Source: Tanypteryx hageni (lineage: Eukaryota; Arthropoda; Insecta; Odonata; Petaluridae). From it: a stretch of DNA of 64,000 bases. The notes under the pieces were generated by a model. It was not told where the DNA came from. It was given only the letters and a program-made list of their open reading frames with translations, and did no database searches. The translations under genes and the position numbers were made by a program. Position 1 is the stretch's first letter; each line of letters starts with the position of its first letter. Shown one piece after another: positions 12,717-63,280 of this stretch. The stretch covers positions 27,134,124 to 27,198,123 of the forward strand of contig CM054112.1 in assembly GCA_028673005.1 (NCBI GenBank), given 5' to 3'.

Positions 12717-12791
12717 GGTCCGTACCACGCACAGAGGCCAGTGATACGGTAAGAGGTCCGTACCATGCGCAGACCAGCACTGAGGGGTTAA
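12717..12791. mobile_element. piggyBac-type terminus (right-hand end, family of 15479)
   Basis: The sequence ends CACTGAGGGGTTAA, a TTAA target with the C/G-rich end typical of piggyBac elements. Two copies of GGTCCGTACCA[CT]GC lie at 12717 and near 12756. They match the motif in the oppositely facing end at 15479. The element body should lie to the left, but no matching left end or transposase is seen. Confidence 0.5.
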
Positions 12792-13379
12792 TCATGAGGC
12801 TCATCTGATCAAGCAAGGCACTGCCATACCACAATATATGTGTAACAATACATAAATATTAATGTTCATTATCATAATAGTGCATTCTATGAAAACAATA
12901 ATAGTCAATATTGTCTCACTACTAATAAAAGTGAAAGATGAAATAATGATTTTACCTTAATATGCATTTGATTCATTTATGCACTCGGTCTGATGGTGAG
13001 GCAGAGTATTTATGAACGAGAACACACAAAATATCTCACGTTATTAATTCACTATAAAATGTATAGTACATTAAAATTTCTTGCAAAATATAGACCAAAA
13101 TTTATAGTGTGTATTGTATTCTCGAGAATACAGTTATTCTGTTTGGCTTTAAATAACTGCTAATTTTAGAAGTATTCTTGCTGACGAGAATATGAATGTT
13201 GTTAGTGTAAAATTAACCTGGGAGTACCCGATTAGCAGAAAATAGCGAAAACGATTATTACGCACCATATTGTTTATTCCATGTGGGTATGAAAACAAAA
13301 GGGTAAGGCAAAATTAAATAGTTGGAGTCAAAACATGTATGTCATACAAGACTGACTGGTACTCGGTTTCCGTGTGTTG

Positions 13380-15478
13380 TTTTGCGCATTGAATCGCCTG
13401 AACCTTATAACTAATAGCGTAGGCATATCTTTTCACTTTTGTAGCCATTGCGATCTCAATGCACATAATGCTATTTATCCTAGATATGTATCAAATATTT
13501 ATGGCATCTACATGAATTCTACTGCTCCGTAGCATTAATTGCGTTATTCAACGGGCCCATTAGGAACTAAAACATCGCAAATGTGCCGAAATTATAATCA
13601 CTGAGTGGACATCTTTAATAATAAAAGAAGATGTCTGTGTGTCTGTGGCAGTCATAACTCTTCAGAAAATATGTGGGGGAGCTCCAAAATTTGGCAGCAG
13701 CTTCAAGTTGATCCTGAGAGTTGCAGTGCCATAAATAATGCGAATCGGCCCACAGAAGCCCGAGGGTCCCCATTGTTGGTCCAAATGCAGGTTTTTTGAA
13801 GAAATCTCAGCAACCAATTCACCGATTTTGATGAATTCTCCACTTATATCAATGTTTTGATGAGACACATTTTCGAGCCTAAAATGGATAAAATCGGTCT
13901 ACGGGGTCAAGGATCGTAATGTAAGGGCCTATCCAAATTTCATGATTTTGAGGGGTCCCCATGGAACGGTCCATCCAAATTTCAGCGATGTCCATCTGCC
14001 CGTGCGTATATATCAGGGAAGAACTGGCTGAACCGATTTCAACCAAATCTGGTAGGTACATAGAATCTTCACATAAATTCATGACTGAAATGACATTTGG
14101 ACCAGATCGACCAAGCAGGGGTGCCACAATTGCAAAATAAATCTTTTCGGTAATTATGCTTATGGAAGGAATTGGCTGAACCGATGTCAACCAAATTTGG
14201 TACATAGAATTTTCACATAAATTCATTACCTAAATGACATATTTCGACCTGATTAACTAAGTAGGGGTGCCACAATTGCAAAGTTAAACTTTTCGGTAAT
14301 TATGAATTTGGAACGATTTGGCCCAACCGATTTCAACGAAATTTTGTATGAAGGAGTTGTGCAACATAAAATAAACAAAATTAAGATTTTTATGCTAGAT
14401 ATAAAAAGCAGGACTGCCATAATAAAAGTAATAAAATTTTTTTACAAGTGTTTGTGTTGAACTGCCCGTATCAATATTAACAAAATTATAATATTTATTA
14501 TGCACACACATTTGGACCGGATCAACTAAACAGGGGTGTCACAATTACAAGTTTAATTCTTTCAGTAACTATGGATTTGGAAGGAATTGGCTGAATGGAT
14601 GTCAACTAAATTTTATATATGATTTTTTACAATATACCATAATAAAATCAAGATTTTAAAGGGGAGCTTAAGAGCAGGGCTACCACAATTAAAGGTAAAA
14701 TAATATTTAATTTAAACATTTTTTATAGAGGTCTGCATGGATTTTAACCCATTATGGTATATATAATCTTCATATAAATAAATAACCCAAATAGTATATT
14801 TCAACCGGGTCGACTAAACAGGGCTACCACAATATCAAGGTTAGAATTTTTCTGTAACTATGAATTTCCATGGTATTGGCTGAACCTATTTCAATAAGAA
14901 ATTTCATTTGTAGTGCGGGTATAGAATGGCCAAACGAAATGAACATGTTTAAAATGGATCTAAAAAGCAGAGCTACAACAATATAAGGAAAAATAATTTT
15001 CTGATTTCAAAGCAAATACATTAATATTTGATTATACTATGGCAAATTTGACGAAAAGCATTCTGTTTGAAGATATCTCAGCAACCAATTCACTGATTTT
15101 GATGAATCCTCCACCAATATTAATGCTGAACCAAAAAACGTAGTGAATTAAAACTTGGTATACATACTAGAGACATTGAGGATATGCACCTCAGCGTCAG
15201 AACTTTGATTTCTTGGAGGGGGGAGTTATCAAATTTTAATCAATAATTAATTTGTTCATACCAATTAAAGGGGAATATTGGTCAGTTACCATGAGAGTGC
15301 ATTGAGTTTGGATGAAAATATTATCGAGTGATATGTGCATGAAAAATTCTAAACTCTAAACCCAGGGCAAATCCCGGACAATTATGCTAGTGTATTAATA
15401 AAGCGTAATAATGAAAATGCAACCTTGGAATTCATGTTGCATAGGGTATTACTGTATATATTAACAAATTTTTCACTA
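13380..15478. repeat. second copy of a TA-flanked element, interrupted by a Helitron
   Basis: 13380-13611 and 15391-15478 align with 41090-41385, the right part of the element that ends at 41556. Shared words include CCTAGATATGTAT, ATCTACATGAATTCTACT, TCATTAGGAACTAAAACATC, CGAAATTATAATCAC and ATTACTGT[AG]TATATTAACAAA. The two blocks are contiguous in that other copy, which therefore acts as an empty site for the Helitron. Its own right part is lost where the piggyBac-type end at 15479 begins. Confidence 0.75.
13612..15390 (+). mobile_element. non-autonomous Helitron
   Basis: Begins TCTTTAATAATAAAAGAAG, a typical Helitron start (TC plus an A/T-rich run and the AAAAG-AGATGT block), and ends with a 16-nt hairpin CCAGGGCAAATCCCGG (15362-15377), a short spacer and CTAG (15387-15390). 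It sits between host A and T with no target duplication, as Helitrons do. The interior carries repeated units (GGCTGAACCGAT, ACAGGGGTGCCACAATT, TTTTCGGTAATTATG) between about 13990 and 15010 but no Rep/helicase frame. The uninterrupted site at 41277/41278 confirms both ends. Confidence 0.88.
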
Positions 15479-15575
15479 TTAACCCTTTAACGCCAGGATC
15501 CGTACGTGGTACGGACCCAGGTTTCATTCCTTCGTGCCGGGATCTTTACCACGTACGGACCCTTGCCGCGACTCT
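15479..15575. mobile_element. piggyBac-type terminus (left-hand end)
   Basis: TTAA at 15479-15482, then CCCTTTAACGCCAGG, then the dyad TCCGTAC-GTG-GTACGGA (from about 15500), and a second half-turned copy TTTACCACGTACGGACCC near 15553. The element body should lie to the right. No transposase of this family and no right end could be found before the next insertion. Confidence 0.6.
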
Positions 15576-16588
15576 TTTAATTTGCTGTATTTCGATTATA
15601 AACATTTCTTATAGAATAATATTTTTGTTTAACACTGAGGAAAGATTTTTACTTGAATTCTATAAATAGAATACGTTTTGTGAACTCTTAAATTGACTTA
15701 TGTAATTTTTTTTAGTGTACATGAATGGAAAACTGCAAAAAAACTTTCTCACATCTCTTTTTTATTCTTTACATTATCAGTTCGTAAAATTTTCTTTTAT
15801 TAGAAATTAATCACATGGATAATTTCTTATATTTTTAGGAATTTAAACAATTTCTTTTGTTCATCTGGCTCTTATTAACATTATAAAAATTGATTTCGAG
15901 AGTTACGATTTTAACATCCAATTTTTTGTCTATTTTAAAATATATAGTATATTAAAATATAACTGTACTATGTAAAAACTAAATGGACAGATTATGCAAA
16001 TAACTAAATAAACGTGTGTATATTCTTGGAACACAGCTGCACTGGAGTAGGCTAGTATCGTAAAGAGGCAAGAGACGAAATGAAAACGGCACGTTCTCGA
16101 GCGTCTCTTTCTCAGTGATGGAAGGGACCCTCCCTGTTTTCTTCGTGATATATCTTCTGATATCTCATTGTGCATGCTCTCATTCGAAGGAACACTTCAT
16201 ATTCTCAAGACTAAACAAACTCGAGAGGCAACAAATCATTGTATATTGGTGCCGTCATTGTGAAACCTCGAGGATGTAATTTCAGTGAAGATTTTGTGAG
16301 CTAAGCTAAGTGGTCACGAAATGGACAATAGGATAACAATACTTCTCTTTGTTAGGCATCCAAATGCGATAACATTCTCTCTCTGAGAGCGAGAGAGAGA
16401 GAGTTAATAACCAGGCATAGGCTCCAAAGAGTCGGTGTTTACAAGAAGCCAAGAAAGCAAAGGCAGTAGACCATTGAGTAGACCAGAGAAGCAAGCTAAG
16501 ACTATACAGAGAACTTCAGCGTGTGATATCACAAAACGTCGAATATATCGATGACTATTTCTGCAGGAGCAAGACAGAGTTTCATTGC
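15576..16588. other. probable transposon interior and simple repeat
   Basis: No protein-coding signature. Contains a GA/CT-rich run (about 16375-16403) and the word ATTGGTGCCG at 16245, which resembles primer-binding sites of BEL-type retrotransposons but has no LTR support. It may be interior sequence of the piggyBac-type element starting at 15479. Confidence 0.35.
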
Positions 16589-18599
16589 TTAACCCTTAAT
16601 TAGTCGCGTGGGGTCAATATGACCCCAAGCAATGTTTTTTCGTCAATATCTAAAGAAATGTATTGTCAATCTAACCCAAACTTGTTCTACCTTCGAAACT
16701 GACATTCTAGAAGAGAAATTAGCATTTCTTTGTTTTTTTAATTTGTTATTTTTGATATTTTTATATTTATAGATATAGTATAAATATTGTAATTATTGAG
16801 AAAATTAAACTATTTTAATGTGCTATTTTGGTGTGTATCCATTTGTTATATATATATGAGGTTAAAAAAGTTGCTTTTATTATGACATCTCTCTACTTGT
16901 TGCTTTTTTCTCTATTGGTATAGAAGGGTTAAACGCAATACAGATTATTATTATCACATCAGAAATACAAATAATTTTCCTGATAAGCAGTATTTCATTG
17001 TTTTAACACTAGTTCTCTTATGATACATTTCTACTTCACTAATTTTCACTATAGGTTGGTTACCCCTCTTCCTCCCATCTCCCCCCCTCTTCCCCCTCCA
17101 ATGTACCCTTTTCCCTCTTTTCGGAATTCTCCGGGTGTTTTCTTACTTCGGCCGCACACATGCTCTCTCTAAAAATTGCTGTCGAAGAATTGACCCGAGG
17201 ATGACTTCTTTGACGCAGAATTCCACGTATTCTATCAAGACCGATGCATGATTTTTGAAACTATTTTCTAGATTTTATAATTGAACTACATCCATATTAT
17301 TCCCTTTTCTGTACAGTAATTATTTATCACATGCTTTCGTCATTATTGTGAAATACTCTCAAAAATGGAACATCTTTCTAGCGACTTTTGGCAGCTTTTT
17401 TATCACCCTCATTGGATGAAGCTCTTAGTACCCATGTGCAAAAAGGATAAAAGAAAGCGGTTTGCCTTTCATTACCGCTCACCCTTTTTAGCACGAGTTT
17501 CTCCCTTATTTTTCGGAATAAGCACGAACACGAATGAGATCGGCAATCTTCAAAGTTTTTGGATCTCCTACCGGTCGCATGATGGTCACGGTTGGGACGT
17601 TTTAGACCAAAATATAAAAATCCTATTTCCAATGGGGTTTCTATGGAGAAGTCCCAAGTATGTTCACACTTATAGGGGAGGACGCGGTTGGACCTCGGCA
17701 CGAACCCCTTGGGTCGCTTGAGGAGGCAACTTTTGTCCAAAGCCCCATCGAGGGCAATCCTCGGTGACAGCAGAAGTGAGCTTGAATCTTTCTGCTTGTT
17801 GGGGGCAGCCATAAACTACTTCATGCTGTAGGTGGGGGCCGGAAAGCGACCGTGCCGCGACCGATGTCTAACCCACAAGTGTGAGTGATCTCCGCAAAAA
17901 TAGTCCTATCACTAATAAAGCCCTCAACGCGACCTTCACGCAACAATGCAACAAAAAGTGCGATCAGCTCTGCGCTGCTTATAATGTTGGCAGAAGAACG
18001 AAAAGATGGCCGTTAGCTGTGTTTTTTATTAGCTGAACGTTTCTGCCATAAATGCCTTTATTGTTTATAAACAAAACGTTCAAAAGGAAATGACAAGGCG
18101 AAATTTCTTGAAATCATTATCGAAGGAATTAATAAAGGATCTACAGATTTTGAGGTCTCAGAGTCAGTTTATATCTAGGCATCTCCGAAAGAGCATATGC
18201 ACTCAACAGGGACTTGCGCAGGAAGGTCCATCACCAGGATCGGGACTATCAACAGGAAGATGCGAACATTGCCCAAGAAATAAGGACAATAAGTGTCCAC
18301 TAGATGTGGAAATTGTGGAGCTTTTACTTGCAAAGACCATATGATAATGAAGTGCATTGAATGTGGGAAGAGGGAAAGTGATTAGAAAATACAAAAAAAT
18401 ATTTTAAGTTATTTTAATCAATGTTTATTGTAAAAATTATTAATAAATAATTGTATTATAATGTAAGATTGATTTTATTTCCAGTAAAATATAAATAAAT
18501 TAATATATTATTGCATATCTTAAGAAATTATTTTGGGGTCATATTGACCCCACGCGACTAATTACGGAACTTTTTTTCACGCGACTAACTAAGGGTTAA
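16589..18599 (+). mobile_element. piggyBac-type element 'B' with TGGGGTCA dyads
   Basis: TTAA at both ends (16589-16592 and 18596-18599) with ends CCCTTAATTAGTCGCG and CGCGACTAACTAAGGG. Each end carries the dyad TGGGGTCA-ATA-TGACCCCA (16609-16627, and its mirror at about 18534-18551). The length is about 2.0 kb, shorter than a full autonomous copy. Its 3' part holds the C-terminus of a piggyBac transposase. A related copy ends at 30380. Confidence 0.85.
17959..18385 (+). pseudogene. piggyBac transposase C-terminus
   Basis: In shifting frames it reads CDQLCAAYNVGRRTKRWPLA, NVSAINAFIVYKQNVQKEMT, RRNFLKSLSKELI and RCEHCPRNKDNK, then CGNCGAFTCKDHMIMKCIEC. This is the D-Q-x-x-x-x-Y...R-x-T-x-R-W-P...I-N-A-x-x-x-Y block of the RNase-H-like fold, followed by the cysteine-rich zinc-binding tail of piggyBac transposases. 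At least two frameshifts and no catalytic region remain. The 1.3 kb upstream inside the element has lost homology; its open frames at 17365-17812 are not transposase. Confidence 0.75.
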
Positions 18600-18974
18600 A
18601 CACGGCGAGTGATCAAGAGATCATGAGCGCGGTGGTGAAAGTGAAGAGAGATTGCGTTGGGATTCGCAATTTATGGTGAGGTTGGGGCAGTACGTGACAA
18701 TATCCTTGATCCACATTTTATTAACCCTTAAGTGGACGGACGTGCTCCTAATTTTTACATAACTGGTCGTGCGGCATACTGAGTACGCCAGCCCATTAAG
18801 TAGGCATCCAATGCAATTCAAACTGTTAAAAATAATTTATTAACAATTTAAAATAAAACTGATGAATACAATGAAGTTTAATGAAAGTTATAAAACAAGA
18901 AAATTCATAAAACATTCAAATCATGTTGAAATATTTATGAAAACTGATGCTTACATAAGCTGAAAACTGCTGTC

Positions 18975-19690
18975 TAAAAAAATGTAATCACTTTCACCCG
19001 TTACAAAGGAGTTATAATTTTGGCAAACGTATTTTATTACCGCCATATGTTTTTTACAGTTGAACTGTTGACAATTGGCACATTGTAATGTTGTATAATT
19101 ATTTTTTGCCTAACCACAAGCCATGCATCGGCGATTCTTCCCTGGGGATCCTTCGTCAGACATTTCAACTATTTGTTGTTTGGCTGGGCAGTATTTTGAA
19201 ATGAGGACTTTCATATTAACCGGAAGCGATTTTATAGTTGCTCGCTCTTGGGGATGTTCTTTTTGGAGTTGCAGTGCAAAGTTCTTAAAAAATACTCTTC
19301 GATATTTCTGAGGGCATTCAGGATGTGAAGCATCATTCGAACATTTATTCCCGCAACGTTCAATAAAGAAAAAACTACTAATGGCCATCTTTGAGTTCTC
19401 CTTGATACAGAATAAGTTGAACACATTTTGTCAACTGTATCAACCCATTAGTGAAATTATAATTCAAAATAATTTCTGTTTCATTGATTGTTCATCAACA
19501 ACATTACCGAAATACATAGTTGAAAATAATGACAGATTTATTTATCTTTGGGATGTAGGAGACCAGTGCCTTATTGTTTTGGAAACCAAATAGCAACGAA
19601 TTGACAGCCGTTTTTATTAGGAAGAAACTCTGCAGGCAACTCCCTTTTATTATTCTTGACAGTTCCCAACTACTACTTCTTGCTCAAATT
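18975..19690 (-). pseudogene. piggyBac transposase, C-terminal half
   Basis: Across frameshifts: EFLPNKNGCQF, WVDTVDKMCSTYSVSRRTQR (the G-V-D-x-x-D-K-M motif with the third catalytic Asp region), RWPLVVF, NVAGINV, YRRVFFKNFALQLQKEH, then a Cys-rich tail NRRCMACG and LQCANCQQFNCKKHM. The order matches the second half of piggyBac (DDE_Tnp_1_7) transposases. There is an early stop inside the zinc tail and at least three frameshifts. Confidence 0.75.
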
Positions 19691-19708
19691 CTTCTCAAGT
19701 CGTCTATA

Positions 19709-21733
19709 CCATAGTTACCCAAAAGGAAAACGACCCTTAAAAAAATTAGGTTCACTTACAAAAAAACTTTTACTTATATGTATAACAAGCTAACACTAAG
19801 AGGATGAATAAAAAAAAGTAAATTTACTACTTACATCTCCCTCTCCTCTGTTTCCTTCCCTTATTCTTGCTGTCCTGTTCATTCATCACAACTTATTCAA
19901 ATTCGAACAAGTTGTCTTCCATACCGACAATGGAATTTGATATGCAGCATTTCTTGAACCCTCTTGAGATACTATTGGGATCTATTTTATCCATGCTGCA
20001 ATGATCCAATTACAGAGAAGTGGTATACTGGCCTTCTTAATTTTCCCTGTAGGAGTTAATGCATGGTCCCCTGCCAAAAGCCATTCTGAATAAAATGACT
20101 TGATGTAATCCTTAAAGGGCTTCATCACTACAGCATCTAGCACTTGAATTTGTGATTACATACCTCCTGGTATAACTACAAGGTCAGTATTCATACCATG
20201 AAATGAAGGGTATTTTGAACTTCCTCTGTAAGGTGGCCTTTGAACGCATCTAATGATAAGACGAGCATAGCTCTCTGCCTTAAAAGTGCCCCAGGTCGTC
20301 TATTCCACACTATGCTTAGCCAGTCCTTCATTAAATCAGCTGACATCCATCCTTGGCCTTGACATTTAACAATTATTCCATTAGGTAGTACTTCCTTAGG
20401 CACTGTTTTGCATTTTAAAATAACATACGGTGGAAACTTGGTTCCATTCGCTAATACAGCCAGCATTACAGTAATGCACAGTTTTTCATTCCCGGAAGTT
20501 TTTATGATGACAATTTTTGCACCCTTTTCGTTGACTGTGTAATTGGATGGCATGTCGAAGTAAATGGGTGTCTCATCTGCATTACCCATTTGGCTCAGAA
20601 GGTAATTGTGACTTTTCCGCAACCGAATTACATGCCTCTGGAAAGTTAATAGTTTGTCCGTGAAGTCGGAAGGTAGACGCTGGCAAAGTGAAGTTCTTCG
20701 TCGCAGGCTAAAACAATTACGATGCCTCATACGCACACACCTTCCATTACTAGCCTTAAATTCATGGTGTGGAATGTTTTACGATCATGCTAATTCTTGG
20801 GCTTTCAATTTAATGATATCCTGCGTCACTGGTTTACCGTCCATTCTTTGAATATGCACAAAGTATGCCATTACCTCTTCTAATGCATGAAATCGGCCTC
20901 ATTTTGGTCCACTAAATGATCTCCGTGTTGAGTTAGAACCTTCAAGTTTCTCCTTTGCTTGTTTCAACCTTCGCACATTTGCTTCAGTCACATTGTATTT
21001 CCTCATTACCGCACAATTATTTGTTTCTTCAGCATAGCGCACCACCATTAACTTAAAATTCCTGTCGTAACTTCATCGATTTCCTTTCGACACATTCCCT
21101 CTTACCAGTTCCTTTTCTCTATATGCGATCTGCCATTTGTTTGAGGTATCTTATTTTAAAGTTATAAATAATAACTTATCACTATTTCACTTTAAAACTC
21201 AGCAAAGTGTGTACTCTAGTGCTCTCATAAATTTTCTACTCTGAAACTCACGTCCACTTTACGTCTGCCGTTGGCATACCAAATGCAAAGCATCATGTTT
21301 AAATTGTAGTAGATACGTTTAAATTGTATCAGTCTTGTTTACATTGTATTACTAGACACCTTAATTGGTGCCTACATGACTTTGTTTCATATTACGCACG
21401 GAACCGCCCAGCTGTAGTCATTTTTTTTTCAAATTGTCACGCAATTACCTACCCAGTTCTAAACACTTCCCTACCACCAAAGTGGAACCATTGGTCTGTG
21501 GAAGCATTTTTAAGAAATTTGAATTTAAATTTTTAAGTATTGTAGTAGTTAATTAAATATGATGTATTACTTTATGCAATAATAAATATTTTAACTGACA
21601 TATACTTGACATCTGGGTGTTTCATGGCACATTTAAAATAGGGGTATATTCTCACCTTAAATCCTCATACTCCATTCTAAGACGATACCTAATATTTTTA
21701 AAAAAACCTCATCTTCCTTTCGGGTAAATACAG
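19709..21733 (-). mobile_element. POGK-like pogo element, copy 1
   Basis: Flanked by TA (19707-19708 and 21734-21735). The right end reads CCTTTCGGGTAAATACAG; the left end, CCATAGTTACCCAAAAGGAA, is its mirror. The 2.0-kb body carries a minus-strand transposase remnant. It is inserted inside piggyBac element C and is therefore younger than it. Confidence 0.75.
19850..21135 (-). pseudogene. POGK-like (pogo superfamily) transposase
   Basis: N-terminal region: FKLMVVRYAEETNNCAVMRK, YNVTEANVRRLKQAKEKL (helix-turn-helix), SFSGPK, HALEEVMAYFVHIQRMDGKP. Core: MGNADETPIYFDMPSNYTV (first Asp), GWMSADLMKDWLSIVWNRRP, LDAFKGHLTEEV (second Asp), VIPGGM, SQIQVLDAVVMKPFKDYIK (third Asp), PLLCNWIIAAW. This is the DDD layout of the POGK-type pogo family. 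Residues from about 20191 to 20736 are one open frame; several stops and shifts lie outside it. Confidence 0.82.
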
Positions 21734-22074
21734 TATTTCTGCAGAAGTAGCAATTCTACGAGACCAACAGAAAATATTAAATCCGTTACATAAAATCGGT
21801 AAATACATTACTCATAAAAAGAATTAAAACTAGTTTCATTTTCTCACATAATTGGATTTGTGACATACAGAGAACAGCTGGGAGAGTTACTCTTGATTTA
21901 GGTCTTACTATCAAACTACAACTGGCAGATGAAACAAAAGCCTAAATCACCACTGACCTTGCGATTTTGGTAGTACATTAGATAGGGCAAACGAAACACG
22001 AAAGGGAAAGAAATCATGGCACTTTTAAATCATTTGCAGTACTTAGTATGCCAGCGCGTCCACTTAAGGGTTAA

Positions 22075-23430: not shown

Positions 23431-23479
23431 AGAACCGTAAGTAGTATGATCACACATTTAATTGATGTTTTTGAAACAA

Positions 23480-23760: not shown

Positions 23761-23771
23761 TATTATTATTA

Positions 23772-26494: not shown

Positions 26495-26552
26495 TACTTA
26501 AATTATTGAATGTTAATAAAATATTTGACATATCACAGACAACAATAATTAC

Positions 26553-28227: not shown

Positions 28228-29640
28228 TTAATCACTACCCCTGCCCCCACAATCATAGCATTTCATTAACTCTTTGCAAATAAAGGCCCCACAATTGGCA
28301 CAACTAAATGGCACTTTATTGTCCTTAGTTCTAGGGCAAAATTTGCATCTTACCCTGGAAGGTCCAGCTACAAAAGATGGGCCTTCTTCTGCAAGTCCTC
28401 CCTGTTGAGTGTGAATGCACTTTCAGAGATCTCTTGGTCTCAAAACTGACTCTGGGATCTCGAAATTTGGTGCTCTTTAACTAATTCTGTAGATAGTACT
28501 TTTAAGAAGTTTCGCCTTGTCATTTCATTTTTAACATTTTGTTTATACAGCATGAAAGCATTGATGGTGGCAACATTAAAAAAATGAAAAAAAAACAGCT
28601 AATGGCCACCCTTTCGTTCTTCAGCTAACGTTTTAAGTGGCACAAAGCTGGTAGCATGTATCGACTCCCCCTTTTGTTGCATTGTACATTGTTATTATTT
28701 TGGGTTTTTGGAGATCTTGGGAGCTGTCAACTATTTTATCATCGTGATGCATGGTTGATATGAGTATCATGGATTTTTTTTCACTGGAACATAGGAGACT
28801 ATTGTGATATCTTCAGTGAAACCGAAAATGCAGCTTCTAACACTCCTGTCTCTTTTTGGAAGAAACTCAGGTGGGATTTCTTTTTTATTTTTACGCAGAG
28901 TGCCGACAAGTGTTAACTTGAACTCCGACAGAAGTGATTTAGCTAAAAGGACACCTGTATACCAATTATCAGTGGTTACATTTCTATTCATTCCTTTTAT
29001 TGGCATAACTAAATGTTTCACCACCTGATCAGGTTTATTACTGGTTGCGTATGGTCCTCCTGGTTGAACACCCACATATATTTCAAATTTCTGTAAATAA
29101 AATGTTTTCGTGTCCACCAATGCAAAAACCTTTATTCCGTACCTTTTTGGTTTTTAGGAATATACTGGCAAAAATGGCACCACTGACCTTTGAAAGGAAT
29201 CAGTTGCTGCTATTCAATCGATACATATTCTGTTGAGATGTATGCCTTTTCAAAGTTTTATGACAATATTTGAATAAGGTGACTTATCGAAGAAAGCTTA
29301 TCAGTTACTTTACGCACTTCTCGGGTTGTAATGTCATCAAACCTTATACATCTCATCAAGAAAAGAAATCTTTTTGACCTTATTGTCAAAGGAAACATTT
29401 TGATTCATGTGCTATCATTCGCCCACGAATCATTTAAGTTGAGATGAGCAGACTTCAACACATCTGACATAAGTAATAGGCCCAGAAAAGCACGTATTTC
29501 TTCTTTTGCATCTCGGTCTTTTTCAAAATTTTGTTGCACTTTTTCAATATGAATATTCATATTTTTGACAAGAATCCCTAAAATACGATCATCAAAATAT
29601 AACGAAAACAATAACAAAAATCGGAGATACATACCTTACA
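28228..29640 (-). pseudogene. piggyBac transposase, frameshifted
   Basis: From the N-terminal side: MNIHIEKVQQNFEKDRDAKE, EIRAFLGLLLMSDVLKSAHL (start of the piggyBac domain), IPFKGQ and YGIKVFALVDTKTFY-like text near 29130-29220, then an open frame 28767-29120: VGVQPGGPYATSNKP, MPIKGMNRNVTTDNWYTGVL (second catalytic Asp in TTDNWYT), LTLVGTLRKNKKEIPPEFLP, SIFGF-like CIFGFTED, VSYVPVKKN. The tail RCKFCPRTKDNK, SCANCGAFICKELMKCYDC is the zinc domain and ends at the TAA. Several frameshifts; the first catalytic Asp region is damaged. Confidence 0.82.
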
Positions 29641-30380
29641 AAAACTTTCTGATATACCTAGTTTTATGCAATTGTATGTACACTTTATATTCGTCCACTC
29701 AATCCTGTGTGAAAAAAAATTGGGAAAATTGGGTGGCTGTCAAGATTCAGGGGAGAGCTCTGCGGTAGCTGGGTATAAAATAATTATCATGATGCCGTTG
29801 TACACTATATAGCTATTTAAAAAAATATATTGTATCTGTCATATTGTTTATGATATCAAGCTGTATATAGAGATAGATTTGAATTGAAATCGCTCAAGCC
29901 ACTTTTGAGAAAACTCAATTTTTTATGAAAATCAACAAGAATAAACTACCCTCCATTCTTGCTGTATATGTTACATACCAATATTATATATATTTCAGAT
30001 GATATTATACAAAAATACGAGATTTTATTACATTATGTGCAACCGTTCTGGCACCAGAGCAGGAAAAAGACGACGGACAGACGACGTAGCAAATACAACT
30101 TTTTCAGACTCAGGGATACCTAAAAAGTGAATTTCCATTGAAATGTCAAATTAAAATTATTTTACAGTCTCAGTACTATAGTATTTATATTGTGCATAAA
30201 ACATTAAAAATATCACAATACACAAATCCCAAATTAATCAAAACACTAAAAAAACCATGAAGAAGGTTAGTGGCAAAGGTATTGCAAGTTTGGTCTAGAT
30301 AGGTAATAAATTTCTTTTGATATTGATGAAAATACATGGCGTGGGGTCATATTGACCCCATGCAACTAATTAAGGGTTAA
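28228..30380 (-). mobile_element. piggyBac-type element 'D' (family B), one end missing
   Basis: The right end is TTAA 30377-30380 preceded by CAACTAATTAAGGG and the dyad TGGGGTCA-TAT-TGACCCCA (30342-30360), nearly the same as element B. The transposase runs leftward to a stop at 28228. I find no matching left end (no second TGGGGTCA dyad or TTAA end) beyond the stop, so that end has been lost. Confidence 0.75.
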
Positions 30381-37247: not shown

Positions 37248-40151
<2,904 letters not shown>

Positions 40152-41954
40152 TACGAAAAAACACAAATTTTCAATAATGAGAATTGTGAATTACCATGGC
40201 CACCGCATTTGAGCTTGAGGTAATTTTACGTGAAAATTGAACCTTTGACGATATTATGTAAATCTGTTTGTTTATGTTTTCATTTTGACCACTGTTGAAG
40301 AATAATTTTGATTTGAATGAAACAGTGGAAATATTGTGGATTTGAATTGTATTGTTAATGTCAGAAGGAATAAATTAAAACAATGTAAGATAGCTATTTA
40401 ATTATTTAAGGTCAAATTGTACCTCACATTGTTTAGCCTTTGACGATATTATTCGTAAATTGGTTAAGATACTATGTTGTACATTATGATTTGCTCCTGG
40501 ATACTTAGGCTATGTGCATCACTTTCAGAAATCAGACATTTTCTAAAATCCTGCATGGGCTATGTCCCCGAGGATGCCGGATTTATGAGGTTCACTTGAA
40601 TCGTAAAATAAATATGGAGGATCTAAAACATGTATAATTGCTTTGAGACTTGTACAGCTAAATGTGTCCTGTATGAACTCTGCAATCATATTAATTCAAG
40701 CTGTCAGAATGTGCCGCACACATCGCACATATATATAGTACTCTTTACTTAAACTTAAGTTCAAGATGATGTTTTATATAATGGGATAAATAATAAATGA
40801 AATGCATATGTAATAACAATACGTATGCTCAACTAGTCCTTTTTCTTCTGCAACTCTTTTTGTCTCATACATAACGATTTTGATCGATACAGCAATACTT
40901 AACTTCCTCTGTTCTACTATCCATCACTTCTTCCTCTAGTTGTGGCCATTTAAGACCACCCATACAAAGAATATGTTTCTCTTATACCATCAGCTTCAGT
41001 TTTTCCTCGTTTTCTCCATTCATGGACCATTTTTTTCTTTAAGAGGTGGACTGAAATGATGTGCTGCTGCTTGGTTTCCTTGAATTTTTGCATATTGAAT
41101 GGCTCAAGCTTATAACTTATAGCGCCGCCATTGCAATGTAACGTTATTAATCCTAGATATGTATAAAATATCTACATGAATTCTACTTTTCCGTGACATT
41201 AATCGTGTTATTCAGCAAGCTCATTAGGAACTAAAACATCGCCAACACACCGAAATTATAATCACCATGAGCAGACACGTATTAAAGCGTAATAGTGAAA
41301 ATGTGTCCTCAGAATTCACATTGCATAAAGTATTACTGTGTATATTAACAAAATTTTTACTATTAATTATTAATAATGTATATTTTATTGTATCTGCGAC
41401 GAATGACTGCCAATTATTTTATTTTGGGGATGTGTGTGCTCGTTAGTGTAAGTATTGAGAACAATAATAACCTTACCTTCGGTCTATAAAACGCAGGCTG
41501 ATTTTGGGGGTAATTTTTCTGGGAAAAAAGTGCATCTTATATGCCGAGAAATACGGTATATGAAATAACTTTAAAATGGCATTATATCAATTGCGAACAA
41601 GATAATACATTTTAGCATAGAATTAGCCTTCACATGCCAAAGTGTGATAAACTGACTGTGCAAAGATGAATCTGCCAAATTTCTTACTAGTACTATGGAG
41701 GAGGAAAAAAATTGCAAAAGATAGCAGAAATACCCAGGGTATCATATTAAAAGACGGTCAACTCTAATCAGGGAATTTTTTCCAAAAGCAGTTATAGCTC
41801 TCCACACTCTTCAGTTGATTTCCACAGCAAAAGCTTTCTACCCCAATTAAGCCACAAAAAAATAAGTCCAGTAATTTAACCATACAGTCATGTTATTTAA
41901 AGAACTACATAAGTAAAGATCAAAATACAAAGACTCGGCAACAGTACTGCTTAC

Positions 41955-52138: not shown

Positions 52139-54380
52139 TTAACCTTTTGCACTCGGGTGTCGAGTGTGCCTCGACATGGCTAGCATCGGCACCAGCTCAT
52201 ATGTCGAGCCACACTCGACACGGTGTTTCATCGTGAGGAGAAGGGGGATTTTTGTCCATTTTTTCCAATAACTTTTCTTGTAATCATCAGCGTGGAAATA
52301 CGAGTAAACAACAACTTAATAAAGCAACATGGATTATTTTAAAAATGAATAATATCCTTCTATAATCTACCCATAAAGGACGTTTCCAGCCGATGCCGCT
52401 GCAGCAGATGTTCGTCTTTATCTATTTACTGAGGTGTAAGTGCATTTTCGCTTGCATTAGCTGCCATTCATTACTTGGAAATCATTTGTTTATTTCAGAT
52501 AATGAATTACCAAATGGGGATCATGCATCTGAAAGAGGAGTTGCGTCCGAAATTAAAGTTCGTCAGAAAGAAAAGTTCGCTCGGTCAGCTGTCCCGTCTC
52601 GTATTGGCTTCTAGTATCAACCCCTTTTTTCATTTCGTTTTCTTCTTGTGGTCATCCACCCACCACTGACCCATCAAAGGCCCATTCTCTTTTTATCTCT
52701 TGCATAGAGAACATCTTGAGTAGGTGGGTCCCTTTACACGATGAGTCATATTCTTCTGAGCTTCCATGATCTTACCTTAGTAAACAATCGTCCCTCTATC
52801 ACTCTGAGGTTTGCTTACGTTTCTAGAAGCATCTCTCAGATGTTTTCATGACACAGGGTTCTCTTACAAACGACGCCTTCTCTGTAGTTGACTGAATGCT
52901 TTGTCCGCAAGTAGTCGTATAATCAGAACGAATTGCATCTCCTTAGGATGGATAGATTTTCAAAAGATTTAGAAAGCAGTGACGATGAATTTTACATTGA
53001 CAATGAAGAAACTATTGAAAAACATAATAGTGACGAAAGTGAGTGCTCTGATCACGCATATGAGGATAATGAACCAATCGCTGGTCCGAGTGGAATTACG
53101 AAAAGGAAAACTTCCCTTGTTTCACCCAAAGATCAGAGTGAATGTACTGACGGTGACAGTGATGTTGAATTTGTAAAGACAAAACGAAAGATACGCTTCA
53201 TCACGTATAATCCTAAAAAGCCAACAAAATGGGGTATTCGTTTGTATGTCCTTTCAGATTCTAAATGCGGTTACGTACATTCATTTGTCCCTTATTATGG
53301 TGGAATAACCTGTGAAACCCTGGTAAGACCTGATCTTCCTTTTACTACCAGAATCGTTTTAGAACATCACGACAGATTGAAGAACTCAGTATCTGATTCT
53401 CAAGGCTATCATCTCTTTACTGATAGATATTACACAAGTGTCACTCTTGCAAGGGGATTGCTCAAAGAAAAATCTCACTTGAAAGGGACAATAATGCCCA
53501 ATAGGAAAGACAATCCAACAGTTATCAAGCATCCTAAACTGAAGAAAGGGGAGATAGTGGCGTACAGAGATGAAAATGTACTGCTTCTTGCATGGAAAGA
53601 CAAGAGGATAGTCACCATGCTTAGTACATGGGACACTTCAGAGACTGAAGCTGTGGAAAGAAGAGTGCGAGGCGGTGGCAAAGAAAGAGTTGCCAAACCC
53701 AAGGTCGTGACAAATTATACGAATTTTATGGAGGGAGTTGATATAGCTGATCACTACACCAGCACGTACTGTTTTATGAGGAAGACTCTAAAATGGTGGC
53801 GTAAATTGTTTTTCTGGGGGCTTGAGGTCAGTGTTGTGAATTCTTACATTTTGTACAAAGAATGCCAAAAAAGAAAAAAATGAAAAACCGATATCTCATG
53901 TACGATTTATTAGGAAACTTGTACGTGATCTAGTTGGAGATTTCCGGGGTGGTACACTAACTTCTAGGGGTAGACCATCATCCACAGAACAAGAGCAACG
54001 TTTAGATGGAAAGCTCCATATAATCATCCCTCACCCTAACAAAAAACATAAAGATTGTGTTGTTTGTTCTAATAGAAAAGTCCAAGGTGGAAGAAGAGAG
54101 ACAATTTATATCTGTGAGACATGTGAATGTAATCCAGGTCTTCATGTGGGTGAATGTTTCAAAAAATATCACACCATAAAAAAATATAGAGATTAAAATT
54201 GCTGTATGAGTTGAAAAATAATTTTTAATGTAAAAAAATGCAAATAAATAAGTTTATATGAAAATAAAATTGAGTTTTTCATCATAGTGCCGCCATTTAT
54301 GAAAAATGGGGGTATTTAAAAATTAAATTCCGAGTAGACTAATAGAATCAAGAAAAAAAAATCCGAGTGCAAAGGGTTAA
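52139..54380 (+). mobile_element. piggyBac-type element 'F' (internally deleted)
   Basis: TTAA at 52139-52142 and 54377-54380. Ends CCTTTTGCACTCGG and CCGAGTGCAAAGG are inverted. The left end carries the dyad TGTCGAG-TGTGC-CTCGACA at about 52159 and, 40 bp on, the same dyad in mirror orientation (TGTCGAGCCACACTCGACA). It encloses a transposase that lacks a large middle part. Confidence 0.9.
52948..54196 (+). pseudogene. piggyBac (PGBD4-like) transposase lacking the first catalytic Asp
   Basis: Start ATG 52948 (MDRFSKDLESSDDEF) gives an acidic N-terminus with EPIAGPSG. At KTKRKI the text jumps to RFITYNPKKPTKWGIRLYVL, so the roughly 200-residue stretch that should hold the first half of the DDE domain and its first Asp is missing in frame. 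Then SDSKCGYVHSFVPYYGG, HLFTDRYYTSVTLARGLL (second Asp), YTNFMEGVDIADHYTS (third Asp), KWWRKLFFWGLEVSVVNSYI. A one-base slip in an A-run near 53875 ends the frame; the next frame gives RFIRKLVRDLVGDFRGG and the zinc tail DCVVCSNRK, YICETCECNPGLHVGECF to 54196. Confidence 0.88.
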
Positions 54381-55665: not shown

Positions 55666-55870
55666 GAGTATTAGGAAAAATCAATTGGCATAGCAAAGAC
55701 TGCTTGTGGTCCCCAAAAAATTGTCTCCCTTGGGAGTCGCAACCCTATGTATGAGAACCACTGCTCTAGAGTACGTGCTACTTCCAGACACTATGTACTC
55801 TAGAGTACGTGGTGCCTAGGTAAGGCGTACTCTCAAGTCTGGCTTGTCGGGAGTTCACGTTGCCTGCCAC

Positions 55871-56730: not shown

Positions 56731-56830
56731 TTAACCCCTCAACATCGTCCTTCCTGAGTACCCAATACGCTGGACGAAAACTTCATATGTGGTAGTCCTA
56801 CGTACTGAGTATGTCGCGGAGATCGCTCGA
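56731..56830. mobile_element. piggyBac-type terminus (possible partner at 62295)
   Basis: TTAA (56731-56734) then CCCCTCAACATCGTCC, and a dyad-like ACGTACT-G-AGTATGT at about 56801 that shares TACTGAGTA with the motif of element C. A possible opposite end, TTGATGGGTTAA, stops at 62295. If they pair, the Tigger at 56991 and the MITE at 60416 are insertions inside it. No transposase of this element was found. Confidence 0.45.
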
Positions 56831-57181
56831 TTTCTTAATTTTTTCGATGCAATACATTTTCTTAAATCTGAAAAAACTTGATCTATTTCAAAACAATAAC
56901 CTTGGGTCTTCCTATTGGGCTTAATTCAGCAATTTTTACTTTCTTTTTACCTTTATTATATGTTAAATTTTGTGGCTGGATTTCCACGTACAGTAAAACC
57001 CCGATTTAATGTTCCCGCATTTAGTGAAGATTTTTTCAGGTCCCGACAATAGCTCCATATAAACAATGTATTATTTTCCCGCATTTAGTGAAACCCGATT
57101 TAGTGAAAAACCCGCATTTAGTGAAAAAATATTATGTACTCGTACTTCAATTTTTATTTGACGTTTCCCGCATTTAGTAAA

Positions 57182-58061
57182 CTTTTTCATGTGCAAAAAG
57201 AAATCACAAAAGAAACATATTGTACGTAAAAATTACGATATACACTCAAAACATTGTGAATGGCTCATCATGCGCAAGCGGCTACATTGTCTGCTAAGAC
57301 GGTAGCAGCCGCAAGGAAACCGTAAATCCTACAATGTAATGAATCCTGCTCGTATGTTCCTCATTTCTGGTATCACGCTCAGTTACCTGTTTTCATAGTG
57401 TGCTATATACTCGACGTCATTTACGAGAAAATGCCCTTTGAAAATCACGATCCGAGAGTCATCGAAATAAGAACGTTAAAAGTCCTTTCCTAATTTTCTT
57501 GGAGCGTTGGTCTAGGGGAAACGGGTTGGATTACAAATATTTTTGCCAGGGTTCGATTCTCGAAGGGACCAATATTTTTTTCTCCGGTTTTTTAAATTTG
57601 TTCGCAATTTCCAGCATATCATCGATAAAACATGCAAACCATTTTAAAAAAATGTATTCAATGCATTATAACCACTATTTTCTTCATCGTAATTCTTAAC
57701 GAACATAATTTTACGGATCACCCATTCGCTTTACCATCTCGTCATGTATTGATCATGATTTAAAGTTCTTATCTCGATGACTCTCGGATCGCGATTTTCA
57801 AAGGGCATTTTCTCGTAAACGACGTCGAGTATATAGCACACTATGACAACAGGTAACTGAGCGTGATACCAGAAATGAGGAACATACGAGCGGGATTCAT
57901 TACACTGTAGGATTTACGGTTTCCTTGCGGCCGCTACCGTCTTAGGAGACAATGTAGCCGCTTGCGCGTGATGAGCCATTCACAATGTTTTGAGCGTCTA
58001 TCTTAATTTTTACGTACAATATGCTTCTTTTCTGATTTCTTTTTGCTCATGAAAAAGTTTT
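57182..58061. repeat. long inverted repeat, arms of about 290 bp
   Basis: 57182-57472 is mirrored by 57762-58061. Paired words include CTTTTTCATG / CATGAAAAAG, TTGTACGTAAAAATTA / TAATTTTTACGTACAA, AACATTGTGAATGGCTCATC, GCAAGCGGCTACATTGTC, GGAAACCGTAAATCCTACA, CGTATGTTCCTCATTTCTGG, TCACGCTCAGTTACCTGTT and TAGCACACTATGA-like ends. Identity is high (roughly nine in ten by eye). The 290-bp spacer contains tRNA-like text. A third, direct copy of the arm end (CTCGATGACTCTCGGATCGC, AAACGACGTCGAGT) lies at 58069-58130. Confidence 0.85.
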
Positions 58062-58319
58062 AACGTTCTTATCTCGATGACTCTCGGATCGCGATTTTCA
58101 AAGGACATTTTCTCGTAAACGACGTCGAGTTGGCACCTAGGTATGAATAGGAGTCCGTTATTTTGCATATAATTTCATTCTGCAAAGTCGCAATCCGATA
58201 CGAGTGTCACACCTTGGGGGCTTCCCTTGTGAGACATGTCAGCTGATTACTACGATCCCGATGACGTAATGCCTGTCCCCTCTCCGTCTACCTTATCTAG
58301 CAGTTCAACTCTTCGTTGT

Positions 58320-59429: not shown

Positions 59430-60415
59430 TTTTCTTGTAGCTATGTATGCTTGGTTTTTGAATAATTTTGATATTTTTTGTGAAATTCCAAATATATTTT
59501 AATATTTTTTATTTAATGTTGTATGATGAAGCTTTTTAAAGGAGGGATGAAAAATTGTTTCAAGATTTATGCCAATTTTGAAAATACTTTGAAAATTTTG
59601 AAATTATTTTTTGTAATCATATGAATGATTCATTACAGAAATTTTCATATTCAATAGCAATAAGGCTTGTTTGTCACTGGAATTTGTTTATAAATGTTTA
59701 TTTTAAAAGTATTAATATAAGTATTGTGCATACAAAATTGAAAAATGGATTTTTATTATAGAGACCATTTTCAGTGGCCTTATTCTGGTATTGTATAATG
59801 GAACTAATACACAAGCAAAAAAGATAAATTTAACTCATTTTAATTGAAAACCTCCATTTAATGAAAACCTCGATTTAGTGAAATATATTCTAATCCCCCA
59901 GCGATTCGTTAAATAGGGGTTTTACTGTAGTTACGTAAATTGTGGCTTCTAAAAACCCTTATTCAATGCTGAGACGAACTGTATCTCAACACGAATGCTT
60001 CTGTGAAGTGAAAGGAGATTGTGACTCTGCTTACCTGCCCACCGAATTATCTTTCTCTTGGGTTTTTCTTATGTGTCAGTGCTTGAGAGCTATAAGATGA
60101 GGAGTGCCGAACCATTGTTCAGCTCTCAGGGCCATGTTCATGCTTTAGCATTTCTTGAGAGCAATAGTATGAGAGAGAGAGAAACATCTGCATATGTCCT
60201 AGGTACGTAAGTAAGCCATTTTGATGATGTCTGCTGCTATTTCTTGAGCGAGAGTGCTTTCAGGCTGAGTGCACGGGTCCTTACACTCAGGTCAAAGGAG
60301 AAATATTCTTGTGTCAATCTAAAGAACTTAGTCAGAAGGAAACCTTCACATTGTGCAGAGGAAATTTCATTTGTGTTTTATAGTGTAAATTTTTAGGAAT
60401 TAATTTCATGACAAT

Positions 60416-61294
60416 GGGTCGAGTGAATAAAAACTAAGCAAATGCTTAAAGCATTAAGCAAAAGCATAAGCATTTGAGTGAATAAAAGTTTGCTTTTGCT
60501 TATAAGCATTTCCTACTCAGTTTTAAGCAAATGCTTAAATTTTACGGAAGAAAGCTCTTTGTAACTCTTCCTTCACTTGTTTTTGTTTACATTTAAAGTT
60601 TTACATAGTTGAATTTCAAACTAAAAACATAAATATATTGGGTAATATTTTTTAAAAAGTTAATAATTTTTTAAAACTTTCTTTTATAACTGAATTCGAT
60701 AATATCACAAATCATGGGTGTATTTTTATTCAATTAGTTATAGTAATTTTATCCAGTCATTTGCCTTTATAATGATTTTGGACGCCACAAATATTTCTCT
60801 TACATCACTTAAGTACCTTAAAAATATTTCTATCTTCTGTTTGGAAGACAGTACCCCGCCACGTCTCTCTTGATATTCTCCGAGTAACAGATTTGAAATA
60901 TAGGTACTTAACATTTTCTTCGGAGAAACGATATAAATTTTTATAACCGTTGGTTGTTGAAACTTTTCTCGTATTTTTTAACCTTTCGTGTCACCATAAA
61001 TTACCATATTTATATTTAGGATCAATTATCATGAAAATAGAGTACCCGGAAATATTTTAGCAAACCCTTTACCTCACTTAAAAAAGTTTAAGCATATGCT
61101 TAAAGCATTAAGCAAAAGCTCGGTTTTATTCACATAATTTTAAGCAAATGCTTAAGAAAATTCCTAAAAATAAGCAAATGCTTATTCTTTCTAGCAAAAG
61201 CAAATGCTATTTTTTTTATTCACCCCAAATTAAGCATTTGCTTAAAAAGTGAGGGAAATCTTAAGCATTTGCTTATTTTTTATTCACTCGACCC
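60416..61294. mobile_element. 879-bp MITE with AAGCA(N)2TGCTT arrays, copy 2
   Basis: Ends GGGTCGAGTGAATAAAAA and TTTTTTATTCACTCGACCC are inverted. The 3-bp target duplication is AAT (60413-60415 and 61295-61297). It is the reverse-oriented relative of 7098-7968: the interiors align over their full length, with a small insertion in the first copy. AAGCAAATGCTT-type dyads fill both ends. Confidence 0.87.
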
Positions 61295-61331
61295 AATGTC
61301 ACTCATTTTCTCATAGATTTATTTCTGGGAC

Positions 61332-62291: not shown

Positions 62292-62986
62292 TTAAGGGGC
62301 TATGCATGGCACAAAAGACCAGAATCATTTTGTTTCCTCAGCTTTTTATCTCATGTTTGACTCTAAACTGTGTACATGTCAGTACCCTAGTGAGATAGGG
62401 TATTGGGAAATGTTTATGAGAGCACTTTATGTTCGCAATATATTTTACCTATCGCATATTTCTTTCTTGTTACCAGTTTGAGGCTATGCCTGGCACGGAC
62501 ATACTTGCCAATATCAGATTTTGAGTTATTCATTCTCAACATTTGTAATAATATTTTCATTGGATCCTAATTACAATAAATTTCACATTTACCATGTTTT
62601 TAAATGTTAAGGGATGGCATGAAATTAAGAGGATCCACCATAATTAACACTTTTGTGGAAAAATAAAACTTTTCAAAGTAGGATCCCTGAGAATTTATTG
62701 GGTAAGAGTCTCTTTTTTGAGCCAGAGAAATATGTGCTACATGGAAGTAGGTCGCTTACCGATCTTTCTCAATAAAGAGTTCAGGATGTATGTTCCATTG
62801 TCATAAAAAGTTTCTTTTATCAAAACAGATTACCATGACAAAGCCTCTTGCAGTACAAAATACAGCATTGTCTCTTTAAGGTTAAATTAAATTTATAGAC
62901 ACACAGGTCTTTTAAAATAGTAAAAGATTATAAAAAACAAGGAAGCCTGAAAAAATAAATAATATTAGCAACATTCAAATACATAC
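62292..62986. other. intron tail, possible piggyBac-type end
   Basis: Opens with the TTAA at 62292-62295 preceded by TTGATGGG. The words GGGGCTATGCATGGCAC (62297) and GAGGCTATGCCTGGCAC (62481) are near-repeats 184 bp apart. The rest is AT-rich intron up to exon 62987. Confidence 0.35.
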
Positions 62987-63180
62987 CTGAATTAGCCAAT
63001 AAACATTAGGTTTAGGCCATCCATCTGGAGGATTACAAGTTAACTTGAATGGATTTCCCTCATCTGCACTAACTGTAATGGGAGGCTCATCCTTAAATGA
63101 GTTAAGCTCTGCTTTACGGACAAACACAGAGTTTGAAGTGGCAGTGCCCCATTCATTGTGAGCAAAGCACTGGTACTGGC
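62987..63180 (-). CDS. Nrg: neuroglian exon: end of Ig1, first half of Ig2
   Basis: Acceptor TTTTAG and donor CAG/GTATGT bound a 194-base exon (2 bases, 64 codons). It reads QYQCFAHNEWGTATSNS, the second-cysteine strand of Ig domain 1, then a linker beginning KAELNSFKDEPP, then FKLTCNPPDGWPKPNVYW, which carries the first Cys and the core Trp of Ig2. This matches insect neuroglian almost strand for strand. The product is an L1-type homophilic adhesion receptor of neurons, glia and epithelia. A piggyBac-type end sits only about 30 bases upstream of the acceptor. Confidence 0.96.
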
Positions 63181-63211
63181 CTAAAATAAAAACAAGGTAA
63201 TTAACTATTTA

Positions 63212-63280
63212 TTAACCCTTAAACGCCGTCAGACGTGCTATTACGTCCTGCGTCAGCCATAATTTCTTTTATCTTTTGAC
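63212..63280. mobile_element. piggyBac-type terminus next to an exon
   Basis: TTAA at 63212-63215, then CCCTTAAACGCCGTC and the imperfect dyad CAGACGT-GCTATT-ACGTCCTG. The element body should lie to the right, inside the 813-bp intron; no opposite end or transposase is seen before the next exon at 63994. The Nrg acceptor at 63181 keeps about 30 bp of non-transposon sequence. Confidence 0.5.

What the first reader, a model, noticed from the sequence alone, without database searches (positions are those of the whole stretch)
12717..63280. Every piggyBac-type end here carries its own short dyad near the TTAA
Nine loci have TTAA plus a C/T-rich end, in at least six families. Almost all carry a dyad-symmetric motif within about 20-90 bp, and each family has its own: TGGGGTCA-N3-TGACCCCA (16609; 30342), TCCGTAC-N3-GTACGGA (15500; related at 12717), GGCATACT-N-AGTACGCC (18773; mirrored near 22039), CCCGAGTATACTCGG (37269 and 37310), TGTCGAG-N5-CTCGACA (52159 and mirror), and weaker ones at 56801 and 63230. 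Known: the cysteine-rich C-terminal domain of piggyBac transposase dimerises and binds a palindromic site in the ends. Inference: these dyads are the family-specific sites read by diverged zinc tails, and the tails at 18385, 19000, 28228, 39688 and 54196 differ accordingly.
Basis: partly seen in the sequence, partly recalled or inferred. Interest (0 to 1): 0.78.

Follow-up and report, generated by a model that had tools for sequence, protein, structure and literature searches.

The report
PiggyBac ends with family-specific palindromes
Jumping genes in this insect-like genome carry, family by family, their own short DNA palindrome at a near-fixed distance from the tip, most likely the docking site for the zinc tail of their own transposase, which extends to many families a rule known from three studied elements.

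Summary
In 11 families of the host genome whose ends were set without using dyads, plus four window elements, the strongest symmetry lies about bp 25 from the tip (15 families: mean score 6.63; 300 shuffles: mean 3.85, maximum 4.53) and again about 44 bp further in. The 11 alone show both peaks; inner and outer flanks do not. Three elements studied biochemically have the axis at that place: T. ni piggyBac, piggyBat, human PGBD3/MER85. The dyads are best read as sites for dimers of the C-terminal zinc domain (CRD); no binding was tested here.

Two layouts go with two CRD clades. T. ni-like elements (window A, B; p5) have a dyad at each end. piggyBat-like ones repeat a 43-45 bp unit at one end (best shift in 11 of 13 with both ends known), and their other ends lack the family dyad, F6 apart.

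'Every end' is wrong: the right ends of D and E lack it. That CRD and dyad changed together is weakly supported (Mantel r=0.25, 40/5000; partial test not significant), and strict symmetry is not enforced. Known mechanism, much wider repertoire.

The parts
12717..12791 (-). Decayed end (H'): TTAA at 12788-12791, two imperfect copies of GGTACGGACC, looks like a relative of H/F6
   Evidence: Direct reading; best internal repeat shift 38, not 44
15479..15561 (+). End H: TTAA tip, dyad TCCGTAC-N3-GTACGGA at 15499-15515 (axis 28.5), partial second unit about 44 bp further in
   Evidence: compare genomic family F6
16589..18599 (+). Element A, T. ni-like: dyad TGGGGTCA-N3-TGACCCCA at 16609-16627 (axis 29.5) and 18534-18552 (axis 56.5)
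   Evidence: 1130 places with the dyad pattern in the host genome, reversed-pattern control 0
17872..18382 (+). Element A transposase C-terminal relic with T. ni-type CRD
   Evidence: Profile A2 hits; A2 matches PDB 6x67 through the CRD
18721..22074 (-). Element B, T. ni-like, interrupted by a DDE_1 element: dyads at 22036-22052 (axis 30.5, 5 of 8 arm bases paired) and 18773-18789 (axis 60.5, 7 of 8)
18954..19683 (-). Element B transposase relic and CRD
   Evidence: Profile A2 hits; the CRD piece itself is weak (0.016)
28231..30380 (-). Element C: left end TTAA at 30377-30380, dyad 30342-30360 (axis 29.5); T. ni-like transposase relic 28231-29635; other end not located
37248..40151 (+). Element D, piggyBat-like: tandem dyads with axes 28 and 71 (37268-37282, 37311-37326) at the left end; none of these at the right end
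37812..39685 (+). Element D transposase, broken into several frames, piggyBat-like CRD at its end
   Evidence: Profile A1 hits; CRD signature, read with one stop as X
52139..54380 (+). Element E, piggyBat-like: tandem dyads TGTCGAG-N5-CTCGACA with axes 28.5 and 72.5 (52158-52176, 52202-52220) at the left end; none of these at the right end
   Evidence: 146 genomic places with TTAACC-N13-TGTCGAG-N5-CTC, reversed-pattern control 0
52915..54193 (+). Element E transposase (C-terminal half) and CRD
   Evidence: Profile A1; CRD best PDB match piggyBat 9c0f, 6.2e-6
56731..56815 (+). End F: imperfect dyad ACGTACT-G-AGTATGT (axis 76.5), best internal repeat shift 44
63212..63250 (+). End G: GACGT-N6-ACGTC at 63232-63247 (axis 28.0), no second unit found

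Best explanation
These are ends of piggyBac-superfamily transposons. Each family's dyad is the site on which two CRDs of that family's transposase dimerise and bend the DNA. The axis sits about bp 25 from the tip because the transposase core holds the first 16 bp and the CRD dimer sits just inside it. Most elements offer at least two such sites, as a synapse with an outer catalytic and an inner non-catalytic dimer would need. The T. ni-like clade places one site at each end, the second shifted inward behind a repeat of the tip (27 bp in A, p1, p5 and L064, 31 bp in B). The piggyBat-like clade places two or three units in tandem, 43-45 bp apart, at a single end. Shown here: presence, near-fixed axis, period, family specificity of the letters, association of layout with CRD clade. 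Inferred from published structures: CRD binding, bending and tetramer assembly.
For: Axis and period, with families outside the window reproducing the window's pattern. Family specificity: own arms score 6.41 (38 units), arms swapped between families 2.43 (602 combinations); unit 1 against unit 2 identity 0.77 within and 0.35 between families (axes were chosen for the best own score, which flatters the first figure). CRD classes: profile A1, piggyBat 434 bits against T. ni 258; profile A2, T. ni 506 against piggyBat 197.5, and 5LME CRD at 2.1e-5. Layout against class: family dyad at both ends in 3 of 3 T. ni-like and 1 of 13 piggyBat-like families with both ends known, judged by eye, Fisher P=0.007. 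Genome counts; in the 93 places all 16 close pairs are exactly 44 bp apart. Published anchors: PMC7351741, PMC11707139, PMC13405395 (passages), PMC3459987 (passages and section 7).
Against: No binding was measured. Families share ancestry, so the Fisher value overstates independence; one of the three T. ni-like families, B, has a weak left dyad (5 of 8). F7 has one unit; L058 has a 41-bp period; F5's best repeat shift is 91 with 43 second, and F4 ties 91 with 43. F6 carries its dyad again at the other end, but about 133 bp in. L059 and L060 have weak dyads (3.5-4), though their 43-44 bp units repeat clearly. Other ends often score 5 or more through AT-rich runs, for example F0 in 4 of 6 copies at 27-30.5, F7 in 2 of 3, F1 in 11 of 11 at 69.5-74.5; I did not count these as family dyads. 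A mismatched form of the F6/H dyad (A facing G) is present 93 times against 61 for the matched form, so symmetry at that pair is not enforced. PGBD3's other two palindromes are not 44 bp apart (PMC3459987). F8's array end and L057's ends were not found.
Confidence: 0.85

Rival explanations
1. The dyads are bound by the transposase core or by host proteins (transcription or silencing factors), not by the CRD.
Against: The axis coincides with the CRD dimer site in solved complexes of two clades (PMC7351741, PMC11707139, PMC13405395, passages), and layout changes with CRD clade.
Confidence: 0.08
2. The dyads work as single-strand hairpins or cruciforms (raised for PGBD5 in PMC12324416, passages) rather than as duplex sites.
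For: Perfect GC-rich dyads such as F1's 20-22 bp palindrome could extrude.
Against: Several families have imperfect dyads with 5-bp spacers or mismatches, poor for hairpins but fine for a protein dimer.
Confidence: 0.03
3. The dyads are chance or by-products of base composition near TTAA.
For: AT-rich other ends reach score 5 or more by composition.
Against: No window in any of 300 shuffles exceeds 5.10, against 6.63 and 6.2 observed; flanks and inner sequence are flat at those positions.
Confidence: 0.01
4. Dyad letters drift with family descent and the CRD does not specifically tell one family's dyad from another's.
For: The partial Mantel test is not significant (381 of 5000); A- and C-lineage tails differ by about a third yet share a dyad.
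Against: Symmetry is kept in family after family while the letters change; changes in the MER85 palindrome cut PGBD3 binding (PMC3459987, section 7).
Confidence: 0.1

Closest known systems
Trichoplusia ni piggyBac (PMC7351741, passages)
   Same: TTAA target; dyad axis at bp 25 of the left end; second site further in at the right end; the window-A lineage profile matches it through the CRD
   Different: Dyad letters differ in the families read here; left-end axes of A, B and p5 lie 1-2 bp further in (29.5-30.5 on my scale against 28.5)
piggyBat of Myotis lucifugus (PMC11707139, PMC13405395, passages)
   Same: Palindromes repeated at about 44-bp spacing on one end, none on the other; C1-like CRD; bends near bp 25 and bp 69 correspond to the axes 28-29 and 70-73.5 here
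   Different: piggyBat palindromes are imperfect and I saw no family here with its letters; F1 and L061 carry the array on the 3' side of the gene, and F6 has its dyad at both ends
Human PGBD3/MER85 (PMC3459987, passages and section 7)
   Same: Imperfect 16-bp palindrome 3 bp inside the 13-bp TIR (axis 28.0 on my scale); replacing it cut binding in vitro by 80%
   Different: Its other two palindromes lie deep inside the element, not at 44-bp spacing
Inner inverted repeats of other piggyBac-like elements (PMC12324416, passages, citing earlier work that I have not seen)
   Same: Short inverted repeats at subterminal positions are described for invertebrate and human elements
   Different: In the passages read I found no fixed axis and no link of layout to CRD type

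Membership tests
piggyBac superfamily | TTAA target-site duplication at both ends | tested here: met
   A, B, D, E and 11 genomic families end in TTAA on both sides; in 9 of the 11, F0-F7 and F9, similarity between copies stops at or within a few bases of TTAA; L059 and L060 rest on TIR pairing
piggyBac superfamily | DDE_Tnp_1_7 transposase | tested here: met
   PF13843 matches in the genome; profiles A1/A2 hit window A to E; window C by Pfam. Ends F, G, H show no transposase hit
piggyBac superfamily | Precise excision at TTAA | not testable with these tools
   Needs an excision assay
T. ni-like group (A, B, C, p1-p6) | Core and CRD closer to T. ni piggyBac than to piggyBat | tested here: met
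   Profile A2 (L064 of the A lineage plus 16 homologues): 506 against 197.5 bits, 5LME CRD 2.1e-5. The window C tail alone reached only 1.8, below unrelated chains
T. ni-like group (A, B, C, p1-p6) | One dyad at each end, second shifted inward | tested here: met
   A, B, p5 (3 of 3 with both ends; B's left dyad weak); one end only seen for C, p1, p2, p4, p6, those of p2/p6 with just 4-bp arms; none found for p3
piggyBat-like group (D, E, F0-F9 and others) | C1-like CRD | tested here: met
   Signature in 15 of 16 tails by a pattern that lets one Cys be W or S (needed for L055); L058 fails it. PF13842 on two of three tails tried, not on F1's
piggyBat-like group (D, E, F0-F9 and others) | Tandem dyad units about 44 bp apart on one end only | tested here: inconclusive
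   Best repeat shift 42-46 in 13 of 16 array ends (F4 by a tie) and 0 of 13 other ends; exceptions F5, F7, L058, and F6 for 'one end only'
CRD-dimer binding site | Bound by the cognate CRD | not testable with these tools
   Needs EMSA or footprinting

The most novel reading that the evidence does not exclude
A general end grammar for the piggyBac superfamily: every autonomous element offers at least two CRD-dimer sites on a fixed ruler (axis about bp 25), split one per end in the T. ni-type CRD clade and placed in tandem on one end in the C1-type clade, and CRD/dyad pairs have diverged into a repertoire of mutually orthogonal DNA-binding modules, many of them living side by side in one genome.
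Probability: 0.45. Interest if true: 0.72.

Novelty: new member of a known kind. Interest (0 to 1): 0.55.

Why it matters
I know of three piggyBac-type elements whose end recognition has been studied in vitro (the papers cited here). A single genome holding more than fifteen families, nearly all with their own dyad at nearly the same ruler position, gives a natural series for learning how a small zinc domain changes DNA specificity, and it separates two ways of building the asymmetric synapse. Matched CRD/dyad pairs could serve as parts for orthogonal transposases; piggyBac CRDs have already been put on a piggyBat core for that purpose (PMC13405395, passages).

Tried and rejected
Relatives outside this genome: no confirmed loci in viral contigs or genome contigs. 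Protein relatives exist, mostly arthropod where named, but no DNA with ends was available.

Compensatory-change test on the F6/H dyad: planned with three counts. Matched A:T form 61, mismatched 93; the count of the matched C:G form did not complete. The result speaks against strict symmetry at that pair. Off-spacing controls for family E (one base shorter or longer) did not complete. CRD-dyad correlation: weak. F8's left end was fetched for but not found. L057 and p3: no ends found. wB first appeared to cluster with F0; this was a shared inserted element.

Selection to declare. 58 of the 116 scored PF13843 matches were read (30 loci, 20, 8); the rest were not. Ends of L055, L058 and L061 were recognised through their dyads; they are not but are among the 16. 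Ends of p1, p2, p4 and p6 were picked by eye at a TTAAC tip; only p5 was found by TIR pairing. Of 98 hits, six were fetched in pieces and one (L064) was already held. One search counts only copies in which a TTAA tip was found.
Full report
WHAT IS THERE. The window lies in a 1.68 Gb genome rich in piggyBac-type transposons: the family search had 17,699 first-look candidates, of which 116 were scored. Five elements in the window carry transposase remains: A, B and C close to T. ni piggyBac, D and E close to piggyBat. Three further single ends (F, G, H) and a decayed one (12791) have no transposase hit.

THE OBSERVATION. The quoted dyads are present. Measured from the first T of TTAA, the first dyad of A to E, G and H begins at 19-22, with its axis at 28 to 30.5. 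B's left dyad is weak, 5 of 8 arm bases paired. D and E have a second dyad in the same end (axes 71 and 72.5), and their right ends carry no copy of it. For C only one end was located. So nearly every element has a dyad, but not every end.

CHANCE. Ends of 11 genomic families were fixed without using dyads, by comparing copies or by terminal inverted repeats; four window elements were added. Over the whole scanned range the best positions are centres around 27-31 (mean 6.63) and around 70-74 (6.2). Dinucleotide shuffles give 3.85 (sd 0.27) and 3.84 (sd 0.30); in 300 shuffles the maximum over any window was 5.10. With a GC-weighted score the 11 genomic families alone give 7.12 and 7.03, against 3.61 and 3.49 for sequence 400 bp inside and 3.43 and 3.17 for sequence outside. 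A scan of all 338,050 bases held gives 18 strong GC-containing dyads at 27-30 and 12 at 72-75 over 238 TTAAC[CA][CTG] sites, against a flat background at 3625 other TTAA sites; sites were merged only by an identical first 24 bases, so some families count repeatedly.

COPIES. The A dyad pattern occurs at 1130 places in the genome with no hit for the reversed pattern; many of the places listed lie in pairs 1.7-2.0 kb apart. TTAACC followed after 13 bases by TGTCGAG-N5-CTC, the E tip with its left arm and three bases of the right arm, occurs 146 times, reversed control 0; 22 of these form one series on contig 3. In the held loci (copies with a TTAA tip; score 5 or more at unit 1 and unit 2): F1 10 and 10 of 10, F9 3 and 3 of 3, F3 2 and 2 of 2, F5 2 and 3 of 3, F4 3 and 1 of 3, F6 3 and 1 of 3, F2 1 and 2 of 2, F7 2 and 0 of 2, F0 1 and 2 of 4; L059 and L060 0 of 1 each; A-type 5 of 5 left ends (one of them window C) and 4 of 4 right ends.

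FAMILY SPECIFICITY. A left arm fits its own right arm (6.41) and not that of another family (2.43); two units of one element are 77% identical, units of different families 35%. The axis was chosen for the best own score, which inflates 6.41; the shuffles carry such a selection and reach 3.85. Some related pairs differ on both arms at once: F6 against H, F3 against F9 unit 2, F4 copies L035 against L032 (read by eye). Against strict symmetry, the F6/H clade has a mismatched dyad 93 times, with 16 close pairs all exactly 44 bp apart, while the matched form occurs 61 times. Imperfect palindromes are also what piggyBat and PGBD3 have (PMC11707139, PMC3459987).

TWO LAYOUTS. In 16 array ends of piggyBat-like families the best internal repeat shift is 42-46 in 13 (F4 by a tie with 91); F5 has 43 second, L058 has 41, F7 none. 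It is so in 0 of 13 of their other ends. Third units lie at axes 115 (F1), 120 (F2) and 119 (F5). Other ends reach score 5 or more by AT-rich runs in several families, but carry no copy of the family dyad by eye, except F6, whose other end has it about 133 bp in. In the T. ni-like group the second dyad sits at the opposite end at 56.5 to 60.5, behind a repeat of the tip shifted by 27 (A, p1, p5, L064) or about 31 (B, tied with 68); p4's right end has a dyad at 57.5 but no such repeat. With both ends known, the family dyad is on both ends in 3 of 3 T. ni-like and 1 of 13 piggyBat-like families (P=0.007). A tree groups the four T. ni-like sequences put in with support 1.0, so this is in effect a difference between two clades and not sixteen independent events. 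F1 and L061, sister families (support 1.0), carry their array on the 3' side of the gene.

MECHANISM. In the T. ni structure two CRDs bind the palindrome at bp 17-33, the symmetry axis near bp 25, and bend the DNA; in piggyBat the left end bends near bp 25 and bp 69 (PMC7351741, PMC13405395, passages). On my scale these are 28.5 and 72.5, where the two peaks lie. For PGBD3 the palindrome begins 3 bp inside a 13-bp TIR, axis 28.0, and replacing it cut binding by 80% (PMC3459987, section 7). The step from position to CRD binding is inferred; the positions are shown.

DO THE TAILS DIFFER ACCORDINGLY? Weakly. Mantel r=0.253 (40 of 5000) over 16 families; with core distance removed r=0.168 (381 of 5000) over 13. 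Close relatives (F3/F9, F1/L061) share dyad cores, as plain descent would also give; some close dyads belong to distant tails (F0/F1, L055/F7). Tails of the A and C lineages differ by about a third and share a dyad.

LITERATURE AND NOVELTY. Palindromic sites near piggyBac tips are known and tested for three elements, the two CRD folds are known (PMC8086355, PMC11707139, passages), and inner inverted repeats are described for other relatives (PMC12324416, passages). In seven paper searches and the passages read I saw no statement of a superfamily-wide fixed axis or of layout following CRD clade. The broad survey cited as Ivancic 2025 is not held, nor is a 2017 survey under the DOI I recalled, so this is not a claim that nobody has noted it.

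Noticed in passing
Host genome; read copies at contig 1 890363-895343 (L001/L002) and 2118721-2123461 (L003/L004): A-type elements of 1.7-2.0 kb lack the catalytic part but keep the C-terminal region with the CRD (open frames of 117 and 137 aa in the two read). In one search a stop-free frame of exactly 171 aa around the CRD is listed 30 times of 150 by my count; those copies were not read. A CRD-only competitor or simple youth of the copies would both explain it.
   Followed up: partly
18721-22074: Element B is interrupted by a DDE_1 (pogo/Tigger-type) element (ORF 20191-20736 minus, PF03184 2.9e-13), part of which also lies in L030 (91% over 820 bp).
   Followed up: partly
24007-25786: DDE_1/Tc5-type transposase (PF03184 3.1e-48) in two adjoining open frames, between inverted repeats at 23755 and 26470.
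   Followed up: partly
7098-7968 and 60409-61301: Two inverted copies of an AAGCAAATGCTT-rich element whose ends read GGGTCGAGTGAATA.
   Followed up: no
41170-41400: By eye a paralogue of the flank left of end H (84% over 96 bp in part) with an uninterrupted TTAA region, which looks like the empty site of H.
   Followed up: partly
Host genome contig 3, 22.48-23.92 Mb: 22 E-type ends at 46-88 kb intervals, all on the minus strand, pointing to a large tandem duplication.
   Followed up: no
57179-58130: 302-bp inverted repeat arms, 95% complementary, with a third partial copy.
   Followed up: no
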